Assembly: GCA_907163375.1 (NCBI GenBank) | Contig: CAJQUW010007086.1 | Span: forward strand, 1-64,000 | Reading direction: 5' to 3' | From: Prostheceraeus crozeri | Lineage: Eukaryota; Platyhelminthes; Polycladida; Euryleptidae | DNA length: 64,000 nucleotides | In this document: one piece after another, positions 16,716 through 39,508 of the stretch | Numbering within the stretch: position 1 is the first letter of the stretch | Layout of the letters: the number at the start of each line of letters is the position of its first letter | The notes under the pieces: generated by a model | What the model saw: only the letters and a program-made list of their open reading frames with translations | What the model was told of the DNA's origin: nothing | The model's database searches: none | Translations under genes and position numbers: made by a program

Positions 16716-16916
16716 CTGCAACGAATAATAACCGTCAAGTCATCGCTTTAACTTAGAATTTCATCAAATTCGCTATTAAAGAACATTACACTGCATTGCT
16801 GAATTTGCATCAATAAGGATATTTTCTGATTACCGCTGAAATGCACAATGTCCATGCAATGTCAACAAAGATTCAAAACTCCAGGTAATTCGAGCATTCA
16901 GCTGTGAGGTAACGCA

Positions 16917-17536
16917 AGTAGTAAGCAAAACTCCACCACTGGACCGCGCAAGATGGCCGTCGTCGCTGACGTCCTACCCCCCCCCCTCTGGAACGGCAGA
17001 GTGGCGTGGTCGGCCGCCGTGGTGCTTTGCGTCTGACGTCCCCCCCCCCTCTGGCACGACAGAGTGTACCAGCCAAGTGAGTCCGCAAGGTTCGCTGACG
17101 TCCCCCCCCTGGCCGGCCGTCGTATAGCGCGCGGTGATGTGCTGTCGAGGTTGGCGTGGTGTGCCGGCCAGGTTGGCGTGGTGTGCCGGCCAGGTTGGGA
17201 GGGTGGACTGTTGTAGCTCACCTGAAAAAATCCTAAGTGTCAGAGTGGCTGTGTATGGGTAAAATTTTGAAAATTTTCCAAAGTGTGGTATTTCGACCTG
17301 GGACCTTTACCAAAACATTTTTCATCAAATTTCACTGACCCCCCCCCCGCCAACTTTGGTTCTAGTGGACGGATTTTGTCTTACAGCTACTCGTTTGAAA
17401 GAGGAGAAAAAACTCCTCGACGACATTTTCGCCGCGAGTCAATCGGACCAGCCGTTCAAAAGTTAGAGCTGTTACAAGATGTTACCTGAAAAAATCCTAA
17501 GTGTCAGAGTGACTTTGTATGGTCAAAATTTTGAAA
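16917..17536. repeat. Polinton left terminal inverted repeat
   Basis: Reverse complement of 38899-39502. The outer 300 bp hold three C-runs (on this strand) each next to CTGACGTC. The inner half is one unit of the ~270-bp repeat described at 17220-18025. A ~22-bp unit (ggttggcgtggtgtgccggcc) is present twice here and once at the right end. Differences between the ends are mainly the lengths of the C-runs (10, 10, 8 here against 7, 8, 10 at the right), plus a few substitutions. Confidence 0.95.
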
Positions 17537-20264: not shown

Positions 20265-20295
20265 CCACTGCCTTTCATTTCATTTCATTTCAATC

Positions 20296-20562: not shown

Positions 20563-20574
20563 GATGACGTTACT

Positions 20575-20713: not shown

Positions 20714-20780
20714 TTATGCAGTCGATTGCTATCCCTGAAGCATTCTGATTCGCTGTTGAGCAATTCATTGTTGAAAACCC

Positions 20781-20788
20781 TATATAAG
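20781..20788 (+). promoter_or_regulatory. TATA box of the 84-codon gene
   Basis: TATATAAG 41 bases before the ATG at 20829. Confidence 0.6.
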
Positions 20789-20828
20789 CCAGAAGATTGT
20801 AGCGCTTTTCATTCAATTTCAAGTCACG

Positions 20829-21083
20829 ATGGAAGCAACATCTGCCAACAGCATTCCCGTCTTCATCGATGAAGACAACGCCATTCCCGAGTTCGTCATC
20901 CTCGACGAGTGGGATGAAGAGGATGATAAGAAGGGGAAGATCAAGAAGATCATTTGGACGGATGAGGTGTGGACTCCGAATACCACTCGCATCCGAAAGG
21001 TGCCAGATGCACCAGTACGACCTCGGCGGTATAGGGTCTATGAGAACCTAACCGTCATACCAATTGACTATTCCAGCCAATAG
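20829..21083 (+). CDS. Small acidic protein of unknown function (84 aa)
   Basis: Intronless frame behind a TATA box and ahead of cassette repeat 3. Very acidic middle (DEWDEEDDKKGKIKK) then WTDEVWTP and a basic, Pro/Arg-rich segment. No family recognised; the length and charge would suit a regulator or adaptor, which is a guess. Confidence 0.6.
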   Translation: MEATSANSIPVFIDEDNAIPEFVILDEWDEEDDKKGKIKKIIWTDEVWTPNTTRIRKVPDAPVRPRRYRVYENLTVIPIDYSSQ

Positions 21084-21100
21084 TCAACTTAAATTCACAC

Positions 21101-21243
21101 CCCGATAACGCACCATCGGCTCTCTTAAGGACCACCATGGGGCAAGACATGATAGAACCTCCACGCGGTTTGCCCTGGGCAGTCTTCGGACTGGCGAATA
21201 CTATCATTAAGTTGAATCTGCTATCAGTCAACTTGAACGTTGC
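21101..21243 (+). repeat. 3' cassette repeat, copy 3
   Basis: Third direct copy. Unlike copies 1 and 2, no TATA box with a plus-strand gene follows. Confidence 0.9.
21118..21133 (+). terminator. Histone-mRNA-like 3' stem-loop, copy 3 (one mismatch)
   Basis: GGCTCT-CTTA-AGGACC; a G to A change in the 3' arm leaves a C-A mismatch at the third pair, so this copy is weaker. ACCATGGGG and CAAGACATGA follow. Confidence 0.5.
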
Positions 21244-21584
21244 AAATGAAGTTCGGTGTAATACTTCCTTTCGGGCTCCTTCGGGGTTCCTGTAAAGGGC
21301 GGCGGTGAAACCCGTAGCTATGTATACCGCAAGGGACATTCGGCAATGGTCAATCTTGTTTAACCTCTCTGCGTCATGTTTGCAAGTGATTGCCTCTGTC
21401 TCAACGTAGTATGCATTCGCGTCAGGGCGACATTTAGCCAACTGTCGAAGGTTGCCTAAAACTTTCCATTGCATACGTTATGAGAACCATGAGTTCTACC
21501 TCTCTATCAATGAGACGAATTGATGAATGGAATGAAATGGGAGGACACTCACGCGCCACACGCAACATAACACACTTCTCTCTT

Positions 21585-21995
21585 CCGTAGTCTAACAAGC
21601 TCTTTACACATGGATCGCAGTCGATTGCTATCCCTGTATCAGAACTGTAAGCTATCTTAATTTTATTTGACACTATTTCATCTACCATCATCGTCCATAT
21701 GAAATGTTTTAAGATTTACAAGTTAGACTAAGCGTGCTACTATTTCCAAATGAAAAAGTATACATGGTTAAATCATCCACTTAAGCCCATCCGTAGTCTA
21801 ACAAGCTCTTTACACATGGATCGCAGTCGATTGCTATCCCTGTATCAGAAGTGTAAGCTATCTAAATTTTATTTAACACTATTTCATCTACCATCATCGC
21901 CCATATGAAATGTTTTAAGATTTACAAGTTAGACTAAGCGTACTACTATTTCCAAATGAAAATGTATACATGCTTAAATCATCCACTGAAGCCCC
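21585..21995. repeat. Tandem duplication, two ~206-bp units
   Basis: The unit starting ccgtagtctaacaagctc occurs at 21585 and 21791 with about 95% identity. A 19-base piece of it (cagtcgattgctatccctg) also occurs near 20719. It duplicates the 5' part of the doubtful minus-strand gene. Confidence 0.9.
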
Positions 21996-22666: not shown

Positions 22667-25600
22667 ATGGTAAGTTGAAAATTTCTTCACTCATCTCCCT
22701 CAAACGTGTGGCTAACAGCATCTTCCTCAATTTCAGGCATCAACTTCATCACCAACGCCCTCCCTTCTCGAGGAAAGTTTAGAGTTGTTGAGTCAAAGTA
22801 GGTTGTAACAATACACTGAGACTTGAACAGAGATGATAGAATGATTTCTCTTTCAGGTGATGTGAGTTCCAGCTCAGGACTCTCGCGACAAGGCAACGAG
22901 TGGGAATGTGCCGACTGCGGACACATGTTTACAAGGAAGCACAGTCTCCTTCAACACATCAAACAACGTGTGTGTCAACGCAAAGCGGCGTCAATCTCCG
23001 GAGGTGAAGTTGATTCTGACGATGACATCTCCTTTCCTTGCGATTTGTGCCCTCTTTCTTTTGATAGTCACTTTCAGCGATCTTCGCACAGACTTCAACA
23101 CACACATGCAAATGATCACTACACCAACGGTACCTCTACCATCTCCCTCATTGTTTCACATAATAATTTAGTACGCGACTACTGCATGGAGTCCAATACT
23201 CAAATAGTAGATTTTCCTGAGTGGCTCCTTCAAAATTCTATCATTATCGAAGCGCTCTTCAACAATTTAGACAATTTTAGAATGAAGGCGCTCATCTACC
23301 TTAAACTAAAATATATTAAGATAGATTTTCAAACGGGTCAAGTGACGGAGAGAATACAGTTTCATATTCCTTCCTCTTCCGCAACCGAAGTTGTAGACTG
23401 CGAGTCTTGGCTAAATTTTCACATTCAATGTTTAAAATCAAATGTAGATAAATTCAATCAACGCGACAGCGCTCTCATTTTTGATGGTGTGGACTCAGCC
23501 ATATTCAAAATTTCCCTATTAGAAAGTCATGCAGCTCGAGGTACATTTAAACTACCAAAAACGTTGTATAATAAGAAAGCTGTCATCAATGTCGATTGTA
23601 AATCACAGTGTTTCAAATATGCAGTCCTATCCATCCTTCACTATAATGATATCAACGCGCACCGAGATCGCACCTATAGCTATAGACAGTGGGAGGATGA
23701 ACTAGACTTTGAAGGTTGTGATAGTAACAACATCAAAATCAAAGATGTAGAAACGTTCGAAAAACATAATAAGATTAAAATTGTCGTTCACGTGTGGGAG
23801 AAGGGGTTGAAGGGTGCCCGCTATAATTCACGTTCAACTTGTTATGAACGTGTAGTCAACCTCTTATTAGTAAAACAAGATGATAGCGAGGAATGGCACT
23901 ACTGTGGTATTCCCAAAAATCTCTCGCTTGTACACTCACTTGGGGCACTCTCAAAGAGGTGAACATTTTGTATGCGACCGCTGCATCCGCTCCTTTTGGA
24001 GTAAAGATAAATTTGAAACTCACTATGAATGGTGCAAGCGAGGTAAATTACAAATGGAACGCATGCCCAAAGATAAAATATTTTCACATAGGGATAATGG
24101 TGACGAATTAAGTCCCCTGCGTGTCATTTACGCAGACATAGAATGCTACATTGATGATATCATCCACAAGCCAGCAGCCATATCCTGCTATGAAGTATGG
24201 CATGACCACTTTAGGAATAGACAAAACAAAATGCATACTTGGCAAGGTGAAGATTGCATTTCACAATTTCTAGAATTTCTCGATAAAGCTGCTAAATTTA
24301 AACAATCATATGATTCCCAATTGCAGCGTAAGTCACTACATATGTCAGATGAAGACAAACAAAAATTTGAAAGTTGCACATCCTGTCCTAAATGTCATAA
24401 AACGTTTGATGACGATAAAATTAAGAAAGTGCGTGATCATGATCACATCACTGGTAAATTTAGAAACGCACTCTGCTCCAAATGTAACTTTTCACTTAGG
24501 TTGAGACGTCGTGTACTACCGTCATTTTTCATAACTTTAAGGGCTATGACAGTCATATGCTCATAAAAGGAGGGTTGAGCCAGATGAAATCGTGGCAGTT
24601 TAATGTAATAGCACAAACGAGAGAAAAATTCATGGCAATGACAGCAAAAGTACCAGTAGATAAAACTAAAGAAAATAAGACAGTCTTCTTCGAAATAAAA
24701 TTTTTAGATTCATTCCAATTCATGTCAGCGTCACTAGCTTCTCTCGTTCGTAATCTCAAGTTTCTTCCCCATAGTCAAACTTTGAAGAAACACTATCCAA
24801 ACTTAACGGATGAAATAATCACTCGCAAAGGAGTCTTTCCTTATGCGTATTTTAGCTCAATGTCTAAACTAAATGAAACAAGCCTTCCTTCCATTGACAA
24901 ATTCCAAAACGATTTGACGGGTGAAGATTGTCCAGTAGAAGATTATGAACATGCTCAAGAGGCATGGTTAAAATTTGAATGTAAAACGTTTGGCGATTAC
25001 ATGATCGCTTACTTAGAATTAGATGTCATTTTGCTGGCTGATGTCTTTCAGGAATTTCGACGAGTGGCATTAGAAGAAGACAAATTAGATCCTGTCCACT
25101 TTGTCAGTCTACCAGCCATGTCCTTTAAATCAGCCTTTAAAATGACTGGTGAGTCCATTCATCTCTTACAAGACCCGGAGATGTATAATATATTTGAGCG
25201 CGGAATACGCGGTGGTCTCACATTTGTAAATAAACATCATATAAAATCTGAAACAGTAGGTGATGATCATATCCACCTAAAGTACTATGACCAAAATAAT
25301 TTATATGGCAGTTCACTGTCTAAACCACTGCCTCATTCCGAGTTTAGTTGGTTAAATCAAGATGAGCTTGAGTATTACTCCAACCCTTCAAACATACTGA
25401 AGATTCCAGATGAAGGTGATTGGGGATATTATTTTGAAGTGGATTTGATTTATCCAAATAGCATTAAAAATAAAACTGCTGATTTCCCACTCGCACCTGA
25501 ATCTGGTGAAGTGACTGAAGATATGTTTTCACCATTCATGTCACAATTTCATAATAACTTAACAGAGTGTGGACAGCCAAGGTACAAACCATGCCGCAAA

Positions 25601-26638
25601 CTTTTACTCACCCAATATGATAAGAAAAATTATCTCGTACACTTCTGCATACTAAAATTCTATTTAGAAATGGGCATGCTTCTAAAGTCAGTTCACCGCA
25701 TTATCAAATTTAGACAAAAAGCCTTCCTCAAACCCTACATAGATAGTAACAGTCAAAAACGTGCACTCGCCCAAAATAATTTTGAAAAGGATTTTTATAA
25801 ATATAAGAATAACAGTCTTTTCGGAAAGACCATGGAGGATGTTAGAAAACGTATGAACTACAAACTAGTCGTTGATGAACAAAAATATCACAAATTGACC
25901 TCATCACCTCTTTTCATTGATAGAGACATCATCGATGAGGATCTTGTAGGTGTTAAAATGATAAAATCAGAAGTTGAGTTGTGCAAACCCATCTATATTG
26001 GGCAAGCCGTTTTAGATTATTCCAAGCTTGAAATGTATCAACTCTTCTACAAAATATTAAAACCATGCCCTCTCGTAAAAGAGGTTCGCTTGCTGGGTGG
26101 CGATACAGATAGTTTCTTTTTAGGAATTACCGCTCAAAAAGATTTAAATTTTAATGAAGTAGGCAAGTCATTAGAAAAATATTTCGACACATCTAACTAC
26201 AATCCCACTCATCCACTCTATTCCATACAGAATAAAGCCAAACTTGGTTGTTTTAAGGATGAAACAGCAGGAAAGGAAATAGATGAAATGATTCTCCTCC
26301 GTCCTAAAATGTATTCCATGAAATTAAAAGAATGTGCAGATAGTATTAAGCGTGCTAAAGGTATATCAAAATCCATTGATCACAAAATGAAACATCGGTC
26401 CTATAAGAAGGCCTATAAAAATAAAACTATAACGTTTGTCAATATGACAATCTTAAAATCACAAGTTCATACTGTGAAAACGTACACGTTCAAGAAACGA
26501 CCACTTTCAGCATGGGAGGATAAGAGGTGTTGGATAGGACATAACACATCTCTTCCACATGGACATCCTGACACAAACATACCTCCACCCAAAAGAATAA
26601 AACTCACGCTACCACATTCAGGAGATGTATTGACATAA
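22667..26638 (+). CDS. pPolB: Protein-primed family B DNA polymerase (two one-base breaks)
   Basis: Replicates the element by protein-primed synthesis from the terminal repeats. The ATG (22667-22669) abuts a 67-base intron (22670-22736). A 61-base exon follows, then a 59-base intron (22798-22856). The N-terminal region has C2H2-like fingers (CADCGHMF, CDLCPLSF, CDRCIRSF). An endonuclease-VII-like zinc motif (CPKC...DHDHITG...CSKC) lies between exonuclease motifs ExoI (DIEC) and ExoII (HNFKGYDS). Later come ExoIII (YLELD), motif A (DQNNLYG), motif B (KNNSLFG), motif C (GDTDSF) and the MYSMK box. The frame breaks at a G-run (23942-23945) and a T-run (24525-24529); all catalytic motifs survive across the three frames. 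Convergent with the capsid-type gene downstream. Confidence 0.95.
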
Positions 26639-26775: not shown

Positions 26776-28367
26776 TCACATACATATTTTTATTTCAATA
26801 AACATATCACAATGACTTAACTTTGTTTTCCGAAACACTAACGTTATGAGGGATTTAGTATCTTTCACGTGGATGCACTCTTGTAAACCATTGGTAATTT
26901 TGATAGCAATAGAGGGTATAGTTTGTTTGATGACGGGATGATAGAAAATAGATTCAAACATCTTCTCGACTATTCCATATGAAGCGTCTTTATCATGAAT
27001 GAAATCGCGTAAAATGTATTCTTTTTTCTCACCAACAGAAATAGGTAGAATCAAATCACTTTGAATGTAAAGGTGCTGTTCATGTTTATCAAGTGTCATT
27101 GGTGTTTCTATACCAATCGTATGCGCAGCAGTGAACACAGTTTGTAGCATTGAACAACCAGAGTTTTTTCAAATTTTTTACTCAATTGACATTGAATGTC
27201 ATCACCCAGTTTCAGAACAACGCGTTGATTTTCAATTGAAAACGAAATGTGGTGTGTCTTTACATCATATTTACTTTTCATCACATGCTTCAACTTCTGT
27301 TGTATATAAGGATTTACTACATGAATGAAGCTTTCAACTGTATGATATAGACGCGGCATTATATTGATAGCAACTTTAGATTCTTCATAAGACTGGTAAA
27401 TTTTCTTGATGCGATCACCATAGATGTCAACCCACCATTCATCATTAACTGAATCAGCTTTAGTGTGATATTCATGAGAAGCATACACCACACCGCTTCC
27501 AATAATAGGTGTATAATGTCTTACAAAATGACGCAAGGTTGGAGAGAAATAAACTGTAAGTTTCTCATTATATTTCTGAATAACCAACTTATTTTTGTCC
27601 GCCATAATTTTCTCTCCATACTTCTTACCCACAGTCTCATCCCATCGTTTTACTAACTCAATAAGTGATAAAGGTTGAACACCACGCTTTTTCAAAATGA
27701 TGCGTTCTTCGCATTCTACAACATCTTCATCAAATATTTTAAATCTATAATGAAATTTGTTGATTCGATTTGAATAAACTTTTTTAACATTTGCAGTAGC
27801 AATTGACGTTAGATGTAGTCCATGACCAAAACCAAGATGTGGATAGAATTCATTATCCAACCTCAGTGTAAGACCTTTAGTAAAAGAATGAAAGCGAAGG
27901 AACTGTCTCCCACTCCAATGATAGATAGTAAACTCATAAACTTTCTGATCCTTATTCTTCATGATGGAAGTATTACCACTATTGAATGCCTTAATAATTT
28001 TCTCATTCCCAAATGGTTCATAAGAATCTGATTTTATCTGAATCCATTCATAGTTCCACTTTCCATCTAATGTTAAATTGTATGGGAACTGGAATGCATT
28101 ATTCATCGTTATTCCATCATGGGTGCGAGGAGTCAATATCATTTCTTCCAAATCATTCACATTCTGAATATTGCTATCATAGCAAATACTAGAAACGCCA
28201 ACCTCCCATTCACCTTCTAAATGTAGTGGGCGATTTAATTCTACTCGATAGTCTGATGGTTTATTTTTTGGAAATTTATTCATAGAAGCATTACTGGGAA
28301 AGTAGATTAGAAACGAGTCCTTATTTTCACTGTCCATATTATTCACATTGGAAAAATATATTAGCAT
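26776..28367 (-). CDS. Polinton minor-capsid (penton)-candidate protein A (frameshifted)
   Basis: The N-terminus has the Polinton signature FPSNASMNKFPKN and, about 20 residues on, GEWEVGVSSI; the C-terminus in the 27150-26776 frame ends with a beta-rich segment and LITLVFRKT, matching the family's terminal TLHFRR-type strand. This conserved family lies beside the major capsid gene in Polintons, and I infer it is the minor capsid/penton component; another virion role is possible. The frame changes in or near the T-runs at 27164-27179. The start could be 28367 or the ATG at 28337, which places the signature closer to the N-terminus as in relatives. Paralogue of the next gene upstream. Confidence 0.75.
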
Positions 28368-28376
28368 ACGTTTGCA

Positions 28377-29777
28377 TTAACTCTTCATTCGGAAATGGAG
28401 TGTGATACTTGTCACAGCATCTTTATGAAAAGGAATCAACGCACCAGCATCGTCATAAATTGCAATATCAATTTGTGGGATGTAGTTTGATTTCAGCTTT
28501 GTATAATGCACTTTCTTGAAAGTATGCTCAGATAAAATACTGCAGCTTTTTGGCTGGTATGGTATCATTGCTAGCAATGGAGCTTCAACATCTCCCACAC
28601 GTACATCTTCACCAATATTGGAATATATCTGAAAATAGTTAATACGACGCGATAGCGACATGTCTGCGCTAGCTTTGGTTACAGTACCACTTTTAAAGAT
28701 ATTTTGATCAAAACCCAAAATGTCCATTCGAGTTTTATCCATAATTAGTTCAATACGTTTTCCACTTATAGTGAGAGACAAAGTACCTTCTTTTTCAGAA
28801 AATAAAATATGTTGCTCATTAATCACTTCATTTAAATAATCTACAACCAATTTAACCGAAGTAATGATGCAAGGCATCAACACTCTTGTTTCATATAAGA
28901 TACCACCGAAAGGCTCTACACACTTTCTGTATAAAGATACGGTCCATTCTGTATCAACTTGATTTGATCCATCACATTTTAAATAGCGCATATCAAATTT
29001 TCCATGAACAGCTGCAGAACGATGTCGTAAGAACTGATGAAAATCTTCTGAACAAACTAATACTAGATCATCATCATCATCTAATTTACTAATGACGATT
29101 TGATCCGTTGACTTCGTATACGTCAATGTTGCCACTTGTTTACCATCAACTCGAAGGAGATAATTAAATTTCTTCAATAATGTTTCAGGAGTCATGTTTG
29201 TCTTTCTTGCCTTAATCACAATCTTCTTCACCAACGTCTTCTCATTTCTTGGAATAAGATCTACATAATAAGCTTTCTCTTTGTAAATCAAATCTTTACA
29301 ACCACTTGGGTGGTAATTAACGTTATAATTATCATAGCTTGTTAAGGCGCTAGCGAGGTAACCTAAATCATTTCTTAAACTTGGACTTAAACCAACAATC
29401 CAATCTTTCTCAACTACATGATGTACATAATTATAATCATCATTGTGCAGTGTAAATTGGATGATATGTTTACACGCTTTATTCAAGAAATCATATATAA
29501 AATTTTTACATGATAAGAGATCTTTCTTTGGCCACTGTGGAATGTATACTCGACAGCCCTTTTCACATTGGTAAGCAGCTGTGCGTCTCATATTAATAGT
29601 CATCACCTCATGATCAAAAGATTAGACACAGTTGCTATAAACAAGTTGAGTGACACCCACTTCCCAATTTCCATTTAGCTGTTGTGTATGATCAATGGGA
29701 GTAGAAAAGAGTGCGGCTCGATTACTAGCAAATCTCTTTGTAGCCGCATTGCTAAGCAAAATATGATAAAACGACAT
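28377..29777 (-). CDS. Minor-capsid (penton)-candidate protein B, in-frame stop
   Basis: From the ATG at 29777 the frame reads an N-terminal module of the same type as protein A (LLSNAATKRF, then GNWEVGVTQL), meets an in-frame TAA at 29624-29622, and continues without any frame change to 28377 (467 codons in total). The C-terminus has IYDDAGALIPF and SITLHFRMKS, the family's hallmark end. The piece after the stop has no good early ATG, so one interrupted gene is the best reading. It lies 10 bases upstream of protein A: a tandem duplication. Confidence 0.72.
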
Positions 29778-29812: not shown

Positions 29813-30169
29813 ATGAAGACTTGGATTTTGGACTCTCTACAATATATCAGAGTTGATCGTAATGGAAACGTACATTTCAAAAATTTTCATGGTCATTCAT
29901 CCAGAGGTATTACATTAACATGGCGACAATTTGTCAACCTCAATGATATCATGAGGGATTTGGAATATTTTGAAACATTAAGATTCATCTCCTTGGGTGA
30001 TCAAGTTTGGCTTCAACATTACAGAAATGAAATTCAAATCTACCATTCTCATTCCGCAAACTGTTTCTCATTTCGCAAATACAATTGGGAGAAGTATAGA
30101 AGATACATACAACGCTCCATCATGACATTTATTCGTCGTGAGTTCATCGCCCTACTATGCAAATCTTAA
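29813..30169 (+). CDS. Small basic protein, possibly PC4-like, copy 1
   Basis: 118 residues from the ATG at 29813. Shares with the next gene LDSLQ, a VHFK/VYFK strand, a Gly-rich turn, ITLTWRQFVNLNDIMRDL and NWEKYRRYIQRSI. The strand-strand-turn-helix succession resembles the transcription coactivator PC4/SUB1 single-stranded-DNA-binding fold; that is inference from pattern, not a secure match. Its start lies only 35 bases from the divergent start of capsid-type protein B, so the two must share a very compact promoter. It ends 22 bases before copy 2. Confidence 0.6.
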   Translation: MKTWILDSLQYIRVDRNGNVHFKNFHGHSSRGITLTWRQFVNLNDIMRDLEYFETLRFISLGDQVWLQHYRNEIQIYHSHSANCFSFRKYNWEKYRRYIQRSIMTFIRREFIALLCKS

Positions 30170-30191: not shown

Positions 30192-30842
30192 ATGAGTTGG
30201 AAATTAGATTCCCTACAACGTATTGAAACGGATCATGATCGAAACGTCTATTTCAAAGATTCAACTGGAAATGTGAGAAGAGAGTTTGCTTTATCTTATC
30301 GTCATTTTCAATCTCTACATCATATCATGAAGGATTTGAAATACTTCTATATGAAAAGACATTCACGTATTGGAAATCGCATCTGGCTGCGCGTCAACAA
30401 ACGGCGAATTCAACTCTATCATTCCCAACTTCATACTAACTTCACATTTCATCAAGGTAGTTGGGAGAAGTATAAAAGGAAGGTACATCGCTCAATTTAC
30501 TCATTCTTTCATCATGAAGCGCCATCGCTACACCATCGTCAACATTCTCCGTCGCTTCAGACTCTACACCAAAATCGATCTCGCAACATTACACCAACAC
30601 CTTCCCAACAGCAAGTATTACCCGGGCCGACCTCAAATGTTAGTGGTGAAGATGAACAATTCACGGAATCTTCAACTCTTCCCAAATGGGACTGTACAGA
30701 TTCTCGGCGCCCTTTCTCATTCATCGGTGCAGTCAATGCGCTTAGAGCTACAGAGACTACTACGTCGGATATGGAAGAGGGAGAGGTGTGTGATGTCGAA
30801 TCTGACTGTGGACAATATGGTGATCTCTACTCAATTGAGTGA
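30192..30842 (+). CDS. Paralogue of the preceding gene with C-terminal tail, possibly PC4-like
   Basis: 216 residues. The first ~110 align with copy 1 (LDSLQRIE, NVYFKDSTGNVRREFALSYRHF, IMKDL, SWEKYKRKVHRSI). The tail of about 105 residues is Ser/Thr/Gln-rich and ends acidic (MEEGEVCDVESDC); it overlaps the TBP-like gene in another frame for 329 bases. The tail may be an overprinted activation-type region or simply chance open sequence. Gene order places both paralogues directly before the TBP-like gene. Confidence 0.6.
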   Translation: MSWKLDSLQRIETDHDRNVYFKDSTGNVRREFALSYRHFQSLHHIMKDLKYFYMKRHSRIGNRIWLRVNKRRIQLYHSQLHTNFTFHQGSWEKYKRKVHRSIYSFFHHEAPSLHHRQHSPSLQTLHQNRSRNITPTPSQQQVLPGPTSNVSGEDEQFTESSTLPKWDCTDSRRPFSFIGAVNALRATETTTSDMEEGEVCDVESDCGQYGDLYSIE

Positions 30843-31059
30843 AAGTGTATCATTTTTGAAGATTCGTACCAGCAGTTACAATTTGTGTTATGAACCCGAA
30901 CTTTTTCCTGCAGCTCTCATTAGTTGTTGGTTACCTGTGCATGTGGCAATCTTTCATAATAGTAAAGTGATCATTACTGGACTAAAATCTCATGTACAAG
31001 CAAATGTGATCCTAGACTATCTCATCGAGTATGTACGCACCCAGCGGATTGTAAAATAA
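30514..31059 (+). CDS. TATA-binding-protein (TBP)-like protein
   Basis: 181 codons, exactly the size of the TBP saddle core, with both pseudo-repeats. Repeat 1 (about 8-88): IVNILRRF, KIDLATL, Y...P, LQLFPNGTVQILGALSHSS. Repeat 2 (about 98-175): VDNMVIS, the diagnostic YEPELFP at 126-132, then VAIFHNSKVIITG. Of the four Phe residues that kink the TATA box in TBP, three are present (F56, F131, F147); the first is Pro (P40). Basic residues are common (RRFR, RRIWKRER). The natural start is the ATG at 30514, inside the upstream gene. AATAAA overlaps the stop. Predicted role: binds TATA promoters of the element, and possibly the host's, in the nucleus. Binding itself is inferred. Confidence 0.88.
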   Translation: MKRHRYTIVNILRRFRLYTKIDLATLHQHLPNSKYYPGRPQMLVVKMNNSRNLQLFPNGTVQILGALSHSSVQSMRLELQRLLRRIWKRERCVMSNLTVDNMVISTQLSESVSFLKIRTSSYNLCYEPELFPAALISCWLPVHVAIFHNSKVIITGLKSHVQANVILDYLIEYVRTQRIVK

Positions 31060-31095
31060 AAAACAATTTTTCCAACATGATGTTTTTATTTCAAA
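31055..31095. terminator. Convergent poly(A) signals
   Basis: AATAAA on the plus strand at 31055-31060 overlaps the TBP-like stop codon. AATAAA on the minus strand (tttatt near 31084-31089) overlaps the end of the protease gene. The convergent transcripts therefore probably end within about 40 bases of each other. Confidence 0.65.
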
Positions 31096-31547
31096 TCATG
31101 ATAGAACTTACAAATCATTTTTTCATTAGAGGATGGATTACATGAAAAGTTTTGAATAACAGATACAAATCGAGATACATGTAAACGTTTTAAGATGAAG
31201 TACAGTACAAAAGCACCACACGTTGATGAAAGTGGATGTTGTAGTATGCGTTCATTTCGCTGATATTGACGCGTATGTTTTCTCAACCACTGCTGTGTTG
31301 GTATATTTGGAGGTTGAGCAAGAGAGTCAAATAGTTCACCACGTCGGTCTTCTCCAATAAAGATCGCTTTCCAATACTCACCGCCTAAATTCTGCGAATC
31401 AGTGTTAATCACAATAAAGATGGGATAGTGATTTACTGCAGGTGGTAAGGTATCGAGTGAATAGACATTATCGAAAGCTTTCAACCTCGCTTCGTCTGCA
31501 TTACGCTGCACTTTAGTCTTAATATCGTCAGCAGTCAACCAACTCAT
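31086..31547 (-). CDS. Adenain-like (Ulp1/C5) maturation protease, catalytic His missing
   Basis: 153 residues. Adenain-type cysteine proteases use His-Asp/Glu-Cys plus Gln. Here the block GGEYWKAIFI has Tyr58 where the family has His before Trp; ELFDS gives D74; ILQ gives Q103; STCGAFVLYF gives the nucleophile C110. The Tyr codon is TAT (31376-31374), one transition from CAT. The protease normally cleaves capsid and core precursors; with Tyr at that site activity is doubtful unless another His substitutes. The ATG overlaps the major capsid stop as TAATG. Confidence 0.85.
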   Translation of the reverse strand: MSWLTADDIKTKVQRNADEARLKAFDNVYSLDTLPPAVNHYPIFIVINTDSQNLGGEYWKAIFIGEDRRGELFDSLAQPPNIPTQQWLRKHTRQYQRNERILQHPLSSTCGAFVLYFILKRLHVSRFVSVIQNFSCNPSSNEKMICKFYHDLK

Positions 31548-32823
31548 TAACGATTATACTGAAGAATCACGTCACGATACTTTGTAATTTCAATGTTTGA
31601 ATCGAAGACTGCATAAATTAATACATTGATCGTCTCAGGTAGTGTTCTTTTGAACGTCAAATCCAAATGAATATTATGAGGCACGTTCGCTTGACGATAG
31701 GGGGCACTAATATCGCTGTCAGCAGTCAAATCAAATGCATAAATAGTATATCCACTCTTAAACTCTTTCATAGTCAGTCCGTTGGTGTCATCCGTATTGT
31801 AAAAGCCAAAGACATCCATAAAATCAACATAACTGCGCATAAATTGATCCGAAGCAAAATCTGGTTTGTAGGGTGGACCAGGATGACTCACACCATTTAC
31901 ACGTAAAGCAATTTCACTTAACTGATTGTGTTTAAAATTGAAAGGATTCTTCTTTATATTACCATTAAATGCATCATTTTCAACCATTGCCACCATGAGG
32001 AGCTTCGGTGCTTCCGATGGAAAGAGGCCATCTTTCATGAAACTCTTTTGATCTTTAGGAATTGTAAAGGTGAGAAGCTTTGTATGCTGAACGGGGTAAA
32101 TGGCATTTTGGCGGTTAAGACCTTCAGCATGTCCTCTAATGACACTTGGATTCGGTACTACTCGACGAATGTAAAGTGCAATATCTTCCACATGAATTCT
32201 AAAATTGTCAACTTTAGCAAATGCATTCAGCGCAAATTCAGGCTTATTCAATGTCAGCTTGAGTCGCATGCTGGTATTACAGAGTAAAAACTTTGACTGT
32301 CTAAAGAAGTCTAAATTCAGCGGACCATATAGCTGACATACTCTACTATCTTTAATCATAGCAGATCGCTTTACAAAGCCACTGTTTGTTTCAACATCAA
32401 ATTTTCCTGCTTCATCTCTGTACCATCCCATGGCTTCCATATGACTTTTTTGTGCTGCTGGATGAAACTGTGATACATGATTGAAATATGATTTATAGGG
32501 ATAATCGCTTTGACCACCTTCCACCTGCTGCTCTCCAATCGTTAGAGAAACATCGCGAAGTAATGTAGTCAATGGTAAATTGTTCAGTCCAACTTTATGT
32601 GCATCGTCAATAGAAGTTCCGTCTGCTTGCAGAATTCTAAACCTCAAATCATCATCGCAAAACTCAAATTTATGTAGTCATCACTACCACCAGGAATATC
32701 AAATTCAATGGGGCCAGCATTCTCAGCTGTTCGAGGATGATAATCTACAATACTTGAACTAAGAATATCTGTCTGTATGGCTTGTTGATCAAACAAACAA
32801 AAACCGGAAGTTTTACACTCCAT
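31547..32823 (-). CDS. MCP: Major capsid protein, double jelly-roll (frameshifted near N-terminus)
   Basis: The frame 32647-31547 holds the Polinton major capsid core: LRFRILQADGT, LTTLLRDVSLTIGEQ, YPYKSYFNHV, MEAMGWYRDEAG, LNLDFFRQSKFLL and the C-terminal YAVFDSNIEI. The true start is probably the ATG at 32823: from it a short frame reads PIEFDIPGGSDDYINL, the usual MCP N-terminus, and then the frame shifts by one base around 32650-32680. It forms the hexon-like icosahedral shell. Upstream, the core-protein stop is only two bases away; downstream, the protease start overlaps the MCP stop. Confidence 0.93.
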
Positions 32824-32825: not shown

Positions 32826-33281
32826 TTAGAAGTTATGGCAGCGTCGTCGTTTAGCGCCTGATGAATGATTAGAGCCTCTGCGACGTTTGCGTGAATGCCT
32901 TTTGACTGAAGATCGCACCTTACCAGCTCCGTGATGTTTCCTCCTTCCTTTTTTCATTCGTTTAGGTGATTTCTTTCCTTGAGTAACACCAGCAAAGGTC
33001 TGCTTCAATGTTTTTAAACCGCGTTCCTTCCCACGATTCAACAAACTGCTCTTAAAACTTCTACCTCTGGAAAGATCACTAGCAACATCACCAGCAAAGC
33101 CAACGGCATTACTTAAAACATTTCGTTTTAAAGATCTACCGACATTGGATATGAGAGGTGCTACAACAGATTTCAGTGCACCAAGTATGCTACCTCCACG
33201 TTGGCGGCGAGCGCCGATGTAAATTTGTCCTCCACCACTTACATAGGAGGGTCGTGAATAAAATGAGGCAGTTGGATTCAT
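32826..33281 (-). CDS. Basic core protein, adenovirus pX/mu-like
   Basis: 151 residues. A Gly-rich N-terminus is followed by GARRQRGGSILGALKSVVAP (residues 23-42), the pX/mu-type motif seen in Polintons and adenoviruses. The last 45 residues are nearly all Lys/Arg/His/Ser, ending SSGAKRRRCHNF. Expected to condense the element's DNA inside the particle; the Gly-containing motif resembles adenain cleavage contexts. Placed directly before the major capsid gene, with two bases between. Confidence 0.85.
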   Translation of the reverse strand: MNPTASFYSRPSYVSGGGQIYIGARRQRGGSILGALKSVVAPLISNVGRSLKRNVLSNAVGFAGDVASDLSRGRSFKSSLLNRGKERGLKTLKQTFAGVTQGKKSPKRMKKGRRKHHGAGKVRSSVKRHSRKRRRGSNHSSGAKRRRCHNF

Positions 33282-33322
33282 AGCTCAAACCCTAAACATT
33301 GTTAGTTACAACTTTGCATGAA

Positions 33323-34589
33323 TCACTGTCGATCACTTAGATGAAAGATGTCGGCACGACGCATCCAAGATTTCATACTTGAAGGATAACCAGTCCATTT
33401 AACAAGACACCATTCTTCACCTTGCCGTTTTTTACATCGAATGATTTTCTCTACCAAATATGTTTCACTTTCAGTGACTACCTCAATCTCATCGCGGTAA
33501 AAGCAACCCTCAATTTCTTCATTATCGTAATCTTTCAACTTGTAGGTGGTCGGAGAGTCTTTTTGATTAATCCTTGATACTGTAAATACCTCCTCTGTCC
33601 AATTCGGAAGGTACCCTTTAGCAAAAACACTTTTCACTTTTGAGATACGAACTTTATCACCAATTTTCACATCACTTTTCACATGAGTGCGTTTACGTTG
33701 GAATGATTCGCGCACTTTATCTACATTGTCAGCATTTACATCTACTGGTCTGAGTCCAATAGAACGATGGATAGAGTGATTGTAGGCATGGAGTCTATCT
33801 CGTAGATCCTTTGTCCAATTTTGTGTCAAGTTGGCAGTAAAATGTCGCCACAAGCGATTTTTTAATGTGCGATTAAAACGTTCAACGAGTGCAGCTTTAT
33901 AAGCACTCTTTACACTAAACAACTCAATGTCATGCCTCTCAAATAATCTTCTCACATGCTGATTTTCAAACTCTTTTCCTTGATCACTCTGAATTCTTTT
34001 TGGAATGCGACCTTCTCGAAAAATTGTTTGGAATGCTTTTGCTACTCCTTTCCCTTCTTTAGTTTTTAAAGGTTGAACCCACGCATAACGCGAGAAAATA
34101 TCAATGACGGTTAAAATAAAATTATTGCCCGAGTTATGTTTTGAAATGGAAGCAACATCACACAAATCTGCTTGCCACTGTTCATCGATGTCATGAACAA
34201 TATAATGGCGGGTGCGGTACTTCTTTTTCGCTTGTTTGTGGAGTGTATAGGTAGCCTGACCCTTTAACCATCGTTTCACTTGTGATTGTGGAAGACCACT
34301 CGCTTTTGATAATTTCTTGATAGATGCAAATCCTGCCGGATGTTTTACATCATAATAGATTGACTTCAAACGTTCAGTCGATGACGACTGACTCTTTTTT
34401 CTCCTTCTCATCTTTTTGTTTTCTTGCCTTTCTACATTTACAACAACTGCAGCATTTAGCTTTAGCGGTTTTGCGATCGTGTTCACATTGCTTAGGGGTT
34501 TCATTGTGAGAGCTGGCGCAGCAAGTGCAAGTGACAACGACATTCACCTCTGGCGGCTCATTACATGGTAAGCAACACATCTGCTTCAT
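33323..34589 (-). CDS. INT: Polinton integrase with C-terminal chromodomain (frameshift near N-terminus)
   Basis: Counting from the first codon of the long frame (34543): helix-turn-helix-like YYDVKHPAGF...GLPQSQVKRWL (63-92), catalytic core with D126 (QADLCD), D187 (QSDQGKEF) and E221 (VERFNRTLK), an SH3-like segment (KIGDKVRISKVK), and a chromodomain at ~355-400 (YLVEKIIRC...CLVKWTGYP..MKSWM) that may steer insertion to modified chromatin. A separate frame from the ATG at 34589, one base after the previous gene's stop, encodes a Cys-rich start (CCLPC, CTCC, CCSCCKC) and meets the integrase frame at a T-run, 34395-34400. I think that is the real N-terminus, shifted by one base; the alternative is a start at 34543. 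Confidence 0.92.
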
Positions 34590-34590
34590 A

Positions 34591-35283
34591 TTAATAGTCT
34601 GAGAACATGTATTTCCTGGGAGGAGCTGTTTTACGTTTTCCTTTTACTAGTTTTAGTGGCGATGTAGATCTACGTCGAGTTCTTCCTCTTGTTTGCTTAG
34701 TGAGTGTGGGAGGGGATGTAGCAGGTGACGTCTTAAACCAATTTGTTGGCATTTTCATCGTCTGAAGCATTGGAGTAGTAGCCACTGTTGAATCAAATTC
34801 TTTCAATGTCTCATTATTCAAAGCAAATTTTGGTACATTATGCTTTTTCAATAGTTTAAGAAAGTATGAACAACCAGGTGGAACATAGCCCTGACGGCGC
34901 TTTCTACGTGTCGCATACTGAATCAAGTCTTCATAACGTGAAGCATCAATCACTTTATTTTCATCTGTAATGATTTCTCCTCTATCATTTACATTCAGAT
35001 GGGGTTCAATACTGTTGAAAAGAGATATGGCATGTGCGCGAGATGCTTAAGGTGTAGCAGTCGATACAGAGTCACGCATCTTATTCTTCAAGTTTTTCAA
35101 TTGCTCAACAGTTTCCGATTGTGATAATACAGCACGATGTGGATCTTTGATGTGAACATTTTGCTGATAATCTATTTCTTTCCTATACATTTGATTTGCA
35201 AGAGGTTGCTTTACTTGCTGCATGGCAGTCAATTGTACATATTCATCCTGAGGAATAACAATCATGCGAGAATAAGAACTCAT
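34591..35283 (-). CDS. Conserved Polinton protein of unknown function, in-frame stop
   Basis: 231 codons in one frame from the ATG at 35283, interrupted by a TAA at 35049-35047. The N-terminal part (MIVIPQDEYVQL) and the later part (SIEPHLNVNDRGEII, then YVPPGCSYFLKLLKKHNVP) correspond to one conserved Polinton/adintovirus protein in which a 'LVPEDM'-type start precedes a 'W-D-RGE' module. The C-terminus is basic and Pro/Thr-rich (RGRTRRRST). There is no ATG between the stop and the second module, supporting one interrupted gene. The start codon overlaps the ATPase stop as ATGA. Confidence 0.72.
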
Positions 35284-35945
35284 AGTTTGTAGATAATCAT
35301 GGGAGTTTTCAAAATATCACTTCGAAATCTAAATTCTTCCGGACACTCTTGCGTAAAGTCAATGAATAAGTAACCGTATGGTTTTTCAGTAGCTGCTTGA
35401 AAAATTTCAATTAAGGCTTTTGATCCTCTGGGTGCAACTTGTCGCGCTAAAATTTCAAATTGACTTTTATCTCGCGGATTCTTGAAAATAGCATAATAGT
35501 GTGTATTCAGGTTTCGTGTACGAGCTTCTTTTCCATCAGGAAACAAATTTTGTGTGATATAGATGATAAAACACCTTTTATGATGTGCTGCACGAGTGAA
35601 CATATCTGTAACATCTTTGGAATTCTTACTTTCTTTTAATAAATCATCCAATACAACAACATCATTAGACTGAAGTTTATCCACTGGAATAATTCCTTCA
35701 TGTCGAATAAAATTGCGACTTTGCAATTCCTGAAACAGGGACGGTTGATAAATACCATAACACCAAATCACTCGATTGATAGGTTCCTTAAACAACTCCC
35801 TTCTTTTATCCAATAAATTCAGCGTGAAAACAGTTTTACCTGCATGAGATGGACCTGATACAGTCAGAACTTTATCACATTGAAGTCTGAAATCCATTTT
35901 ATTACTTTGAGATTCAACATTTGCATAATTAACGCTTAGAGCCAA
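35280..35945 (-). CDS. ATPase: A32/FtsK-type genome-packaging ATPase
   Basis: 221 residues with Walker A GPSHAGKT (31-38), Walker B DVVVLDDLL (95-103) and a FIIYITQNLF sensor-like strand near 125-135. This is the FtsK/HerA-family ATPase of Polintons, virophages and nucleocytoplasmic viruses that pumps DNA into the procapsid. Full-length and unbroken. The start lies inside the end of the upstream gene (17-base overlap). Confidence 0.93.
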   Translation of the reverse strand: MALSVNYANVESQSNKMDFRLQCDKVLTVSGPSHAGKTVFTLNLLDKRRELFKEPINRVIWCYGIYQPSLFQELQSRNFIRHEGIIPVDKLQSNDVVVLDDLLKESKNSKDVTDMFTRAAHHKRCFIIYITQNLFPDGKEARTRNLNTHYYAIFKNPRDKSQFEILARQVAPRGSKALIEIFQAATEKPYGYLFIDFTQECPEEFRFRSDILKTPMIIYKL

Positions 35946-36279
35946 AGATATTACCCAATAGGTTGCCCACGGCAGGAGCTATCATTGGAAGTATTGCTGA
36001 AAGGAAACCGCCCTTTTGTGTTAGAGTTTTCCTCTTTCTTTGAAGGGTGACTTTAGGATTGGAGATGAAACGCAATTTCGTAGCATATCGCTTAAGTAAC
36101 TTTCGCTGTTTTGGCGCTAATTTCTTCGTCCTCAACTTCCTCACATGAGAAATAATTTCACAAATGAATTTATCGTTAGCATGTCGTATAGCATTGTATC
36201 GCTGATTTGCTTTCATTCGTCGGAGAGCTTGAATGGCTGAAGAAAACTTTGAAGACTTTTGACTTTTACGTTTCGCCAT
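35929..36279 (-). CDS. Small basic protein with C-terminal hydrophobic helix (pVI-like candidate)
   Basis: 116 residues: a basic N-terminal two thirds rich in Lys/Arg, then KGGFLSAILPMIAPAVGNLL (89-108), a Gly/Ala-rich hydrophobic segment. Proteins of this shape are conserved in Polintons next to the ATPase; the hydrophobic end suggests membrane disruption or capsid-interior binding as for adenovirus pVI, which is inference. Unbroken. Confidence 0.72.
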   Translation of the reverse strand: MAKRKSQKSSKFSSAIQALRRMKANQRYNAIRHANDKFICEIISHVRKLRTKKLAPKQRKLLKRYATKLRFISNPKVTLQRKRKTLTQKGGFLSAILPMIAPAVGNLLGNIFGSKR

Positions 36280-36330
36280 TTTCCGTGTTAGTCTTTGCTA
36301 AAACCTATCTTTACCACATTTGCATAGGAA

Positions 36331-36654
36331 CTAACTATTGCGACATAAGTGACACTCGAAATGAGCAATATCACAGTGGTTACATTTGCAAAGTTGAATG
36401 CAATTACGTATGAAACAGCGTTGACAAAAAGCGTGCTTACATCTCTTGAAGATGCGCTTTTCATTTCCATCCTTTCGCTTACATACATCACAACACATAG
36501 TTTCACCGTTACTGATGTCTATAGCAAGTCTTTTTGAAGATATGAATTTGCTAGCCTTTTCTAAATAATAGACGCATGTACAGAAGGAATATACTTCGAG
36601 AGTGAGCAGACATAGCTTGAAAACCAGTTGTGCTACAATCAAGTACCACTGCAT
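36331..36654 (-). CDS. RING-finger-like protein with N-terminal hydrophobic segment
   Basis: About 107 residues from the ATG at 36654. The first ~30 are hydrophobic (YLIVAQLVFKLCLLTLEV), a possible signal or membrane segment. The second half has a Cys/His array C-x2-C...C-x-H-x2-C-x2-C...C-x2-C (CDVC, CKHAFCQRC, CNHC), of the RING type found in E3 ubiquitin ligases. A role in handling host ubiquitin is inferred from family only. The start lies a few bases after the previous stop. Confidence 0.6.
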   Translation of the reverse strand: MQWYLIVAQLVFKLCLLTLEVYSFCTCVYYLEKASKFISSKRLAIDISNGETMCCDVCKRKDGNEKRIFKRCKHAFCQRCFIRNCIQLCKCNHCDIAHFECHLCRNS

Positions 36655-36661
36655 TTTCAAT

Positions 36662-37150: not shown

Positions 37151-37681
37151 TTATAAATCAATGGTTTGAAAGAGATAAAATAGATACAGCTGGTAACTAT
37201 CATACAGCGAGCAATGATAACCATACAGGACTTTGGCAGTGCTGAGGTAAGGAGGAAAGAAGCATTGGTTATGAACGTAGCTACTACAACGAACAGACAA
37301 AATAGGAACAGACAAATCCTTAAAACGTTTCATGACTTCATGATAATGTTGATTCACTCTACTATCCCAAGGTGGGAGCAAAATATCATCAATGATTAGA
37401 TTGGGAAATACTTTCCTCTCCTTACCAGGATTATTACAAAAGATGCGTATAACATTGAAAGCAGCTAACCATCGTTTAAAGTCAATAAGAAGAGCACTCT
37501 CACAAGAAAAGCCATAGTCTTGCAAATATTTCAGATTAAGTCCATGAATGTGTTTTCTCGCCCATTGATCAACATTGGGATTGCAGTTGGCATGTTGATG
37601 ATAGACACTGACAATCTGATATGTCCAATTGTTCATAGCAATAGCACTGAGCTCCTGTACAGGTTCACCCTCACAATCCAT
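37151..37681 (-). CDS. Possible DEDD-type exonuclease-like protein (176 aa)
   Basis: Starts MDCEGEPVQELSAIAMN; the preceding bases in the same frame read IIF, so a beta strand followed by D-x-E-G and a QE-L-xAI helix is present, as in exonuclease motif I of DEDD nucleases. Other candidate acids are in IIDDILLPPW and HYHEVMKRFKD. The later motifs do not fall clearly into place, so the call is weak. A TTTTAG acceptor lies just upstream of the frame, so the gene may have an upstream exon. Confidence 0.5.
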   Translation of the reverse strand: MDCEGEPVQELSAIAMNNWTYQIVSVYHQHANCNPNVDQWARKHIHGLNLKYLQDYGFSCESALLIDFKRWLAAFNVIRIFCNNPGKERKVFPNLIIDDILLPPWDSRVNQHYHEVMKRFKDLSVPILSVRCSSYVHNQCFFPPYLSTAKVLYGYHCSLYDSYQLYLFYLFQTIDL

Positions 37682-37729: not shown

Positions 37730-37975
37730 CTATAACATATTACAAAATGAAGAATTACATCGATGCTTTTCACGACAAAATACACAAATGATATGATGGC
37801 AACGAAGAAGTAAAATGTATCTAATAAGACCACGTCTACGACACTCAAAGCACATAACCGAATTGTCATAGGGTAGAGTTAGGAAAGGACTAGTAATTCT
37901 CCTTTGATTTGCGTTTTGATGCAGCATTCTTCTCCGACTTGCGCTTCGTACCACTGCTGTTAAGGATTTGATCAA
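37730..37975 (-). CDS. Small Cys/His-rich protein, RING-like
   Basis: Up to 81 residues; the second half reads CFECRRRG...LLRCHHIICVFC...CNSSFC, a C-x2-C...C-x-H-x2-C-x2-C spacing similar to the RING-like protein at 36331-36654. The start is unclear because the frame overlaps the end of the upstream gene by 86 bases. A second RING-like gene in the same block suggests duplication. Confidence 0.5.
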   Translation of the reverse strand: MIKSLTAVVRSASRRRMLHQNANQRRITSPFLTLPYDNSVMCFECRRRGLIRYILLLRCHHIICVFCREKHRCNSSFCNML

Positions 37976-38661
37976 TTATGTCGTCCACGTTGGGTGGTTT
38001 TGGAATATATATGATGGATTCCATATGCATGGAGAGAGAGGCTATTTTATTATCCTTATGCCGACCATAATATAGCCCATTCACTTTGAAAAGGATATCC
38101 CAAGTACCTTCTCCGAGCTCGTCGCATGTGATGGGTGTTGAATGATCTCCCTCCTTCTTATAGTAAGTGCACCAATGTGATACCGGTAGGCAAATTTGAT
38201 TACCATCCCAAATCTTTCTATAGGGAGTATCCTTGTCATCTCTCGCCTTCCACTCTTGAGCAAGAGGAGTAGGAATGTCCATATTTAATGTCACGTACTC
38301 CTCAATAATATCAAGTTGGTGGCGAATGTACGGACTCACGGGGATCAGTATGTAGTCTCCATACTGATTGTGCATTATCTTGACATCCGTGGAAGGGAGC
38401 ATTCCCGTTTGGAGTACTACGCCATGATCGTCATAACACAAGACTTGTTTAAATTTACGCTGTAGTGGTGTAGGATTATGTACCTTGGTTGTTTCTTCCA
38501 ATGCCCTCAGTCGTAGATGATCTGATCGTAGCGAACCTTGCAACGTTTGACCGCCATTTTGTCCTAGTGGTGCAGCAGATGGAGTAGATGCCTGAAAATG
38601 AAAAAGATTGTATTAAGTTTACGTTCAAGGGAGGAGAGGGAGGAAAGTAGCGACTTACCAT
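37890..38661 (-). CDS. First gene of the minus block, unknown function, spliced (~235 aa)
   Basis: The ATG (38661-38659) is followed at once by a 67-base intron (38658-38592; gtaagt...ttttcag) and exon 2 starts GCATCT, encoding an ASTPS-type start. The protein has mixed alpha/beta segments (VLCYDDHGVVLQTGML, YILIPVSPYIRHQL, WCTYYKKEGDHSTPITCDEL) and a Lys/Ser-rich basic tail (KRKSEKNAASKRKSKENY) suited to nuclear import or DNA binding. No family recognised. The arrangement copies that of the DNA polymerase gene, suggesting shared early expression. Confidence 0.62.
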
Positions 38662-38898: not shown

Positions 38899-39502
38899 TT
38901 TCAAAATTTTGACCATACAAAGTCACTCTGACACTTAGGATTTTTTCAGGTGAGCTCCGAACTAAAATCTTGTAACAGCTCTAACTTTTGAACGGCTGGT
39001 CCGATTGACTCGCGGCGAAAATGTCGTCGAGGAGTTTTTTCTCCTCTTTCAAACGAGTAGCTGTAAGACAAAATCCGTCCACTAGAACCAAAGTTGGCGG
39101 GGGGGTCAGTGAAATTTGATGAAAAATGTTTTGGTAAAGGTCCCAGGTCGAAATACCACACTTTGGAAAATTTTCAAAATTTTACCCATACACAGCCACT
39201 CTGACACTTAGGATTTTTTCAGGTGAGCTACAACAGTCCACCCTCCCAACCTGGCCGGCACACCACGCCAACCTCGACAGCACATCACCGCGCGCTATAC
39301 GACGGCCGGCCAGGGGGGGGGGACGTCAGCGAACCTTGCGGACTCACTTGGCCGGTACACTCTGTCGTGCCAGAGGGGGGGGACGTCAGACGCAAAGCAC
39401 CACGGCGGCCGACCACGCCACTCTGCCGTTCCAGAGGGGGGGTAGGACGTCAGCGACGGCGGCCATCTTGCGCGGTCCAGTGGTGGAGTTTTGCTTACTA
39501 CT
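38899..39502. repeat. Polinton right terminal inverted repeat
   Basis: Inverted copy of 16917-17536, ending gcttactact at 39502 and followed by the target duplication aacgca at 39503-39508. Confidence 0.95.
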
Positions 39503-39508
39503 AACGCA

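What the first reader, a model, noticed from the sequence alone, without database searches (positions are those of the whole stretch)
30514..31059. A TATA-binding protein homologue encoded inside a Polinton
Seen: a 181-codon frame with both TBP pseudo-repeats, the diagnostic YEPELFP motif, the repeat-1 GALSHSS block in the place of TBP's GAKSE-type block, and three of the four DNA-kinking Phe. Known: TBP nucleates polymerase II initiation, and some large DNA viruses carry TBP-like proteins; I do not know of one described as a Polinton gene. Inference: the element supplies its own promoter-recognition factor, with altered specificity because the first Phe is Pro.
Basis: partly seen in the sequence, partly recalled or inferred. 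Interest (0 to 1): 0.93.

Follow-up and report, generated by a model that had tools for sequence, protein, structure and literature searches.

The report
Polinton that encodes its own TBP
An integrated virus-like element (a Polinton) in what is probably an animal genome carries its own altered version of the TATA-binding protein, the factor that marks where genes start being read, and relatives of the element in the same genome carry it too, so the element may bring its own start-site reader.

The parts
30514..31059 (+). TBP homologue, 181 aa, two TBP pseudo-repeats
30471..30478 (+). TATAAAAG, 43 nt before the TBP ATG; TATAAA at 43-47 nt in the copies of families B and C read; also encodes Tyr-Lys-Arg of ORF216
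30192..30842 (+). ORF216: N-terminal ~110-aa PUR/Whirly-like (ssDNA-binding fold) domain; C-terminal half overprinted on TBP codons 1-109
29813..30169 (+). ORF118: paralogue of the ORF216 N-terminal domain, 40% identical
16917..17484 (+). left terminal inverted repeat, outer end AGTAGTA
38963..39502 (-). right terminal inverted repeat
16911..16916 (.). target-site duplication AACGCA, left copy
39503..39508 (.). target-site duplication AACGCA, right copy
33323..34543 (-). integrase: rve core plus chromodomain
   Evidence: PF00665 1.8e-10, PF00385 5.6e-06
22841..26638 (+). putative Polinton-type DNA polymerase B region, spread over three overlapping frames in this copy (apparently interrupted)
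   Evidence: zf-C2H2 4.6e-05 (under Pfam cut-off) and Endonuclease_7 2.9e-07; polymerase motifs recognised by eye only; 51-73% identical pieces of the 24557-26638 frame in families B and C
31547..32647 (-). putative major capsid protein frame (name recalled; no profile hit); no ATG near the start of the open frame in this copy
   Evidence: 44-57% identical frames in family B
31086..31547 (-). putative adenain-like protease, directly beside TBP
   Evidence: PF02902 E 0.031, under cut-off
35280..35897 (-). putative packaging ATPase
   Evidence: Pox_A32 E 0.022, under cut-off
30157..30163 (+). ATGCAAA, 35 nt before ORF216 (candidate motif, weak statistics in this family)
28371..28377 (-). ATGCAAA, 40 nt before the second ATG (28337) of ORF 27108-28367, about 10 nt before its first
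33313..33319 (-). ATGCAAA before ORF 32826-33281
35920..35926 (-). ATGCAAA before the putative ATPase
36319..36325 (-). ATGCAAA before ORF 35929-36279

Best explanation
The frame is a genuine TBP and an established gene of a Polinton lineage. It is most likely an element-specific promoter factor. Proposed course: (1) the host's own TBP/TFIID reads the canonical TATA box before the TBP gene; (2) the element's TBP binds element promoters through a saddle whose C-terminal half is canonical and whose N-terminal half is remodelled (Phe to Pro, Thr to Leu), shifting preference away from TATAAAA, perhaps towards a family-specific core such as AAGCAA in family B; (3) its intact E-x-E-L-F stirrup recruits host TFIIB and thus host Pol II, since no TFIIB or RNA polymerase was recognised in the 20 element ORFs scanned; (4) the PUR/Whirly-like proteins ORF118 and ORF216 assist at melted DNA. 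Shown: homology, fold, element context, family conservation, residue pattern, a TATAAA before the gene, hexamer enrichment in family B, the overlap. Inferred: steps 1 to 4.
For: TBP profile and fold. Element ends with target duplication. Of 14 genome regions picked around TBP-profile hits, 11 carry Polinton genes around the TBP, in three families, and 3 are host-gene regions; families A and B share gene order with TBP beside the protease. One family on one side of a 100/100 branch from host and archaeal TBPs. In 131 family proteins, the window's own included: Pro at the first kinking Phe in 125 of 128 aligned; other kinking Phe 131, 130 and 131 of 131; C-half Asn 131 and Thr 130; stirrup E 128 (D 3) and E 131. 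Near copies ranked by DNA similarity of a neighbouring gene: 28 synonymous and 45 non-synonymous distinct variants over 122.7 and 420.3 sites, pN/pS about 0.47. TATAAA 43-47 nt before the TBP ATG in 6 of 6 copies examined from three families. AAGCAA before 6 of 8 chosen starts in family B, 0 of 1000 random-position controls as high; 6 of 10 with two starts first left out, 2 of 1000. No Pfam hit to TFIIB or RNA polymerase in 20 ORFs scanned.
Against: No expression, binding or structure data. In family A the ATGCAA signal is fragile: 6 of 18 starts (33 of 1000 controls as high) falls to 5 of 18 (274 of 1000) when ORF 27108 is started at its first ATG. The A hexamer is in 0 of 8 B starts and the B hexamer in 1 of 18 A starts; only GCAA is shared, noticed afterwards. 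Family-C starts that could be read show neither; its capsid region was not fetched. The TATAAA also encodes Tyr-Lys of ORF216, and in family B an earlier in-frame ATG lies upstream of it (L040:4547), so it may be coding sequence there. pN/pS 0.47 is only moderate constraint; 7 of 22 near copies do not read straight to codon 181 and 0 of 8 more diverged copies do. No search was made for Polintons of this genome that lack the TBP. The database relatives have no known context.
Confidence: 0.6

Rival explanations
1. Decoy or host shut-off factor: the protein keeps the TFIIB-binding stirrup but binds DNA poorly and titrates TFIIB or other TBP partners away from host promoters.
For: One of two Phe pairs is broken (Pro in 125 of 128 aligned) while the stirrup is kept.
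Against: The remaining DNA-contact residues are nearly invariant (N 131, F 131, F 130, F 131, T 130 of 131), which a pure decoy would not need.
Confidence: 0.16
2. Replication or integration factor: a DNA-bending protein acting at the terminal repeats or origin together with the ssDNA-binding-like neighbours.
For: In family C the TBP lies near polB. It overlaps ORF216, a PUR/Whirly-like fold.
Against: The TFIIB stirrup is conserved, which replication would not require. In families A and B the gene lies beside the protease and capsid frames.
Confidence: 0.1
3. A recent capture of host TBP, or a decaying passenger with no function.
For: Of 22 near copies, 15 read straight to codon 181; of 8 more diverged copies, 0 do.
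Against: About 25% identity to the host TBP and a separate group with 100/100 support; three element families, 337 database relatives; near-invariant residues. Decay of old copies is expected of any element gene.
Confidence: 0.03
4. A promoter factor for Pol III or another host machinery rather than Pol II.
For: TBP serves all three nuclear polymerases (established knowledge); the stirrup contact is shared by TFIIB-type factors (recalled).
Against: Long protein-coding genes and a TATAAA before the TBP gene point to Pol II.
Confidence: 0.06

Closest known systems
Cellular TATA-binding protein (eukaryotic and archaeal TBP)
   Different: First kinking Phe is Pro, repeat-1 Thr is Leu/Met/Phe, about 25% identity to the host TBP, encoded by a Polinton, start overprinted by another gene
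Giant-virus (NCLDV) TBP-like proteins
   Same: Virus-encoded saddle; named BFVD matches include TBPs of Heterosigma akashiwo virus 01 and Terrestrivirus
   Different: Those viruses are much larger and many encode their own RNA polymerase (established knowledge; for a megavirus, passage). Here the element is 22.6 kb and no RNA polymerase or TFIIB was recognised. Identity is 6-21% over the 50 rows listed; the best row (A0A5P9U4S6, 21%) has no name, so a small virus is not excluded there
TBP-like factor TLF/TRF2 (TBPL1)
   Same: Divergent TBP paralogue with a changed DNA surface (recalled)
   Different: The host has its own TLF-like frame at C3829:151570-151938 (name recalled) with no match to the 22 element proteins around it; no tree test was made
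Polintons/Mavericks and adintoviruses as described
   Same: Terminal repeats, 6-bp duplication, rve+chromo integrase, capsid-type gene set
   Different: The words TATA and TBP do not occur in six papers on Polintons, PLVs or adintoviruses that I word-searched; in a seventh TBP is absent and TATA occurs twice, in the shown passage as part of an author name

Membership tests
TBP family (PF00352) | Profile match above the curated cut-off, two repeats | tested here: met
   73.4 bits against 22.9, two stretches
TBP family (PF00352) | Saddle fold | tested here: met
TBP family (PF00352) | Four DNA-kinking Phe | tested here: not met
   Three of four; first is Pro in 125 of 128 aligned. This lowers 'canonical TBP', not TBP homology
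TBP family (PF00352) | TFIIB-contact stirrup E-x-E-L-F (residue roles recalled) | tested here: met
   E 128 of 131, E 131, L or I 129, F 130
TBP family (PF00352) | Binds and bends TATA DNA | not testable with these tools
   needs protein
Polinton/Maverick | Terminal inverted repeats and 6-bp target duplication | tested here: met
   repeats ~0.55 kb; AACGCA on both sides
Polinton/Maverick | Retrovirus-like integrase with chromodomain | tested here: met
Polinton/Maverick | Protein-primed DNA polymerase B | tested here: inconclusive
   No Pfam, NCBIfam or PDB hit to a polymerase; motifs seen by eye; related frames in families B and C
Polinton/Maverick | Double-jelly-roll capsid, adenain-like protease, A32-like ATPase | tested here: inconclusive
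   protease E 0.031 and ATPase E 0.022, under cut-off; capsid no hit
Adintovirus | PolB with OTU-like domain and BLAST-recognisable Hexon (definition from a passage of PMC11071296) | not tested
   definition read
PUR/Whirly/MRP ssDNA-binding fold (ORF216 N-domain) | Two beta-beta-beta-beta-alpha repeats, structural match | tested here: met
TLF/TRF2 | Clusters with TLF sequences | not tested
   no TLF was put in the tree

The most novel reading that the evidence does not exclude
A lineage of small (~22 kb) integrating DNA viruses of animals carries a remodelled TBP and a promoter code of its own (AAGCAA in family B, perhaps ATGCAA in family A, in place of TATAAA), so that one viral subunit re-targets the host Pol II initiation complex from early TATA-driven genes to late genes, with an overprinted ssDNA-binding partner. 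TBP and promoter core would co-evolve family by family.
Probability: 0.28. Interest if true: 0.92.

Novelty: new variant of a known kind. Interest (0 to 1): 0.75.

Why it matters
TBP is the hub of eukaryotic transcription initiation. Among viruses, TBP homologues are known to me mainly from giant viruses that often bring their own RNA polymerase. A TBP kept by a small element with no recognised polymerase of its own would be a minimal case of re-targeting a host initiation complex with a single swapped subunit. Three families with diverged TBPs in one genome make the co-evolution of TBP and promoter directly testable, and the copy number may affect the host's own transcription.

Tried and rejected
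Viral-contig scans gave no relatives: TBP alone and with the profile, putative capsid and polymerase frames; they depend on short exact patterns, so absence there means little. PHROGs gave nothing for TBP at E 0.1. PC4 was my first guess for ORF118 and ORF216; no Pfam match and no PC4 row in the fold lists, while PUR, Whirly and MRP came up. A canonical TATA box before most element genes: TATAAA lies within 150 nt of 2 of 22 ORF starts (TBP and an internal ATG of the capsid frame), and 5 more have another TATA[AT][AT]. The ATGCAAA motif as a general Polinton motif: its density is about the same in the element as in the rest of the window, it is not repeated in B or C, and its enrichment in A depends on one start choice. 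Strong purifying selection from the first 30 copies (8 non-synonymous, 29 synonymous) was dropped, because those copies were ranked by protein score; one search replaces it. A search for the rest of family C found only flank and the other side could not be fetched.

Starts left out: in A, four of the 22 ORFs (an internal polymerase frame, the capsid frame, 34591 and 37890, the last three lacking an ATG near the start of the frame); in B, the ATPase (too little upstream held), 26776 and the ORF216-type start; the last two were added.

Papers: passages only, by word search, in PMC10675990, PMC4028283, PMC11071308, PMC8097293, PMC11071296, PMC11464507, PMC7805220, PMC12220804, PMC10120064. Listings only for the rest. 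The original Polinton paper (PMC1450207) and 10.1093/ve/veaa055 (looked up from memory as the adintovirus paper) are not held, so an earlier mention there or in repeat libraries is not excluded.

Full report

THE ELEMENT. Inverted repeats of about 0.55 kb end in AGTAGTA at 16917 and 39502, flanked by AACGCA on both sides: a 22,586-bp element with a 6-bp target duplication. It encodes an rve+chromodomain integrase and frames that I name from memory as PolB, capsid, protease and ATPase; profile support for these is weak or absent. In this copy the PolB region is spread over three frames and the capsid frame has no ATG near its start, so the copy seems damaged; the TBP frame is intact.

COPIES AND FAMILIES. 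The window's genome has 2.05 Gb in 14,165 contigs. A protein search scored 150 of 11,885 first-look candidates; the 150 listed are 98-100% identical over residues 1-181 with no stop. This is a lower bound and favours intact copies. A PF00352 search scored 150 of 10,984 candidates; its top rows are the host TBP (C9306, 123.7 bits) and a second host TBP-like frame (C3829; I recognise it from memory as TLF/TRF2, an animal gene, so the host is probably an animal). I fetched 14 regions around hits of that search. Eleven carry Polinton genes around the TBP: family A (4 loci, 96-97% identical to the window TBP), family B (3 loci, 42-44%) and family C (4 loci; 43-44% in three, 59% and 39% in two pieces in L050). 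As the regions were picked by TBP hits, this shows that such TBPs lie in Polintons, not that every Polinton here has one. A and B share the order polB - 26776 - 27108 - 28377 homologues - ORF216-type - TBP - protease - capsid - 32826 - integrase - 34591 - ATPase, as far as each fetched stretch reaches; the ORF216 domain itself matched by tblastn only in L040 of B. In C the TBP lies near the end of polB. The three host-gene regions show no match to the 22 element proteins at E 1e-4.

FAMILY. One-sequence search: 62 proteins. Profile search: 337, of which 120 were listed; four listed members carry JGI names such as 'TATA-box binding protein'. The genomic context of these is unknown to me. A 37-row tree puts the 33 rows of the family (three from this genome, 30 from the database) on one side of a branch with 100/100 support, apart from the host TBP, P0063 and two archaeal TBPs. 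The cellular sample is small and the branch long, so the origin of the gene stays open.

RESIDUES. In 131 family proteins aligned, the window's own included (roles in yeast TBP are recalled): repeat 1 keeps Asn (109 of 109 with a letter) and the second Phe (131 of 131), but the first Phe is Pro in 125 (Q, T, L in one each; gap in 3) and the Thr is L, M or F in all 131. Repeat 2 keeps Asn 131, Phe 130, Phe 131, Thr 130. The stirrup that contacts TFIIB in known complexes keeps E 128 (D 3), E 131, L or I 129. So one half of the saddle is remodelled in a fixed way while the half that meets TFIIB is canonical. The host's own TBP has the canonical residues in the part read.

SELECTION. Copies ranked by DNA similarity of the neighbouring protease segment avoid the bias. 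Of 31 fetched, one was cut short by a contig end. Twenty-two are over 96% identical: 73 distinct differences from the window copy, 28 synonymous and 45 not, over 122.7 and 420.3 sites (pN/pS 0.47). Fifteen of the 22 read straight to codon 181 (one of them with gaps against the window copy); the other 7 have gaps, some perhaps only an offset of the fetched stretch. Of the 8 less similar copies none reads straight to codon 181. So recent copies are often intact and old ones decay, under moderate constraint.

PROMOTERS. TATAAA begins 43 (A), 46, 47, 46 (B) and 43, 43 (C) nt before the TBP ATG in the six copies read. It also codes for part of ORF216, and in B an earlier in-frame ATG lies before it. 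Most other genes lack TATAAA; exceptions include 32826 in B and a 199-aa frame in C. In family B, AAGCAA lies 33-47 nt before 6 of 8 starts, and 0 of 1000 random-position sets reach 6 for any hexamer; with two further starts and the earlier TBP ATG it is 6 of 10, 2 of 1000. The six are the 27108, 28377, capsid, 32826, 34591 and integrase frames; TBP and protease lack it. In family A, ATGCAA lies 29-46 nt before 6 of 18 starts (33 of 1000), and ATGCAAA before 5 (7 of 1000); but one of these starts was moved to the second ATG after I had seen the motif, and with the first ATG the figures are 5 of 18 (274 of 1000) and 4 of 18 (113 of 1000). The A integrase, protease and TBP lack it. The two families do not share the exact hexamer, and the family-C starts that could be read show neither. 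The family-B signal is thus solid as enrichment; the wider promoter code is a proposal.

LITERATURE. Searches for TATA-binding protein, TBP, TATA-box binding, TFIID and TBP-like with Polinton, Maverick, adintovirus or virophage listed no paper that, by title, abstract start or the passages I looked up, describes a Polinton TBP. The nearest are TATA-binding proteins in mirusvirus-like elements of Cymbomonas (passage) and in a giant virus (passage). The founding Polinton paper and, probably, the adintovirus paper were not held.

VERDICT. TBP identity and membership of the Polinton are as good as settled. Its role as an element-specific promoter factor is the best reading (0.60). The promoter switch is a concrete but unproven proposal (0.28).

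Noticed in passing
window 30192-30842 against 30514-31059: Two genes overlap out of frame over 329 nt, and the second frame is open in three diverged element families far beyond chance.
   Followed up: partly
window 29813-30169 and 30192-30521: Tandem paralogues with a PUR/Whirly-like predicted fold in a Polinton; no Pfam family above cut-off.
   Followed up: partly
window 1007-1137: A third stretch that resembles the outer part of the Polinton repeat, 86-90%, perhaps the end or remnant of another element.
   Followed up: no
window 20088-21241, 21584-21994 and 17220-17900: Direct repeats of 129-205 nt in the left end of the element.
   Followed up: no
window 53345-54409: Mariner/Tc1-like transposase frame with DUF4817 and DDE_3 matches.
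   Followed up: no
window 36331-36660: Small frame with a hydrophobic start and a cysteine-rich, RING-like part; no Pfam match above cut-off.
   Followed up: no
L049, G000:C3829:151570-151938: Host TBP-like frame that I recognise from memory as TLF/TRF2, which suggests an animal host.
   Followed up: partly
window 37890-38543 and 37151-37681: Accessory frames of family A have 21-41% relatives beside the TBP in family C, where the 37890-type frame matches twice in three of four loci.
   Followed up: no
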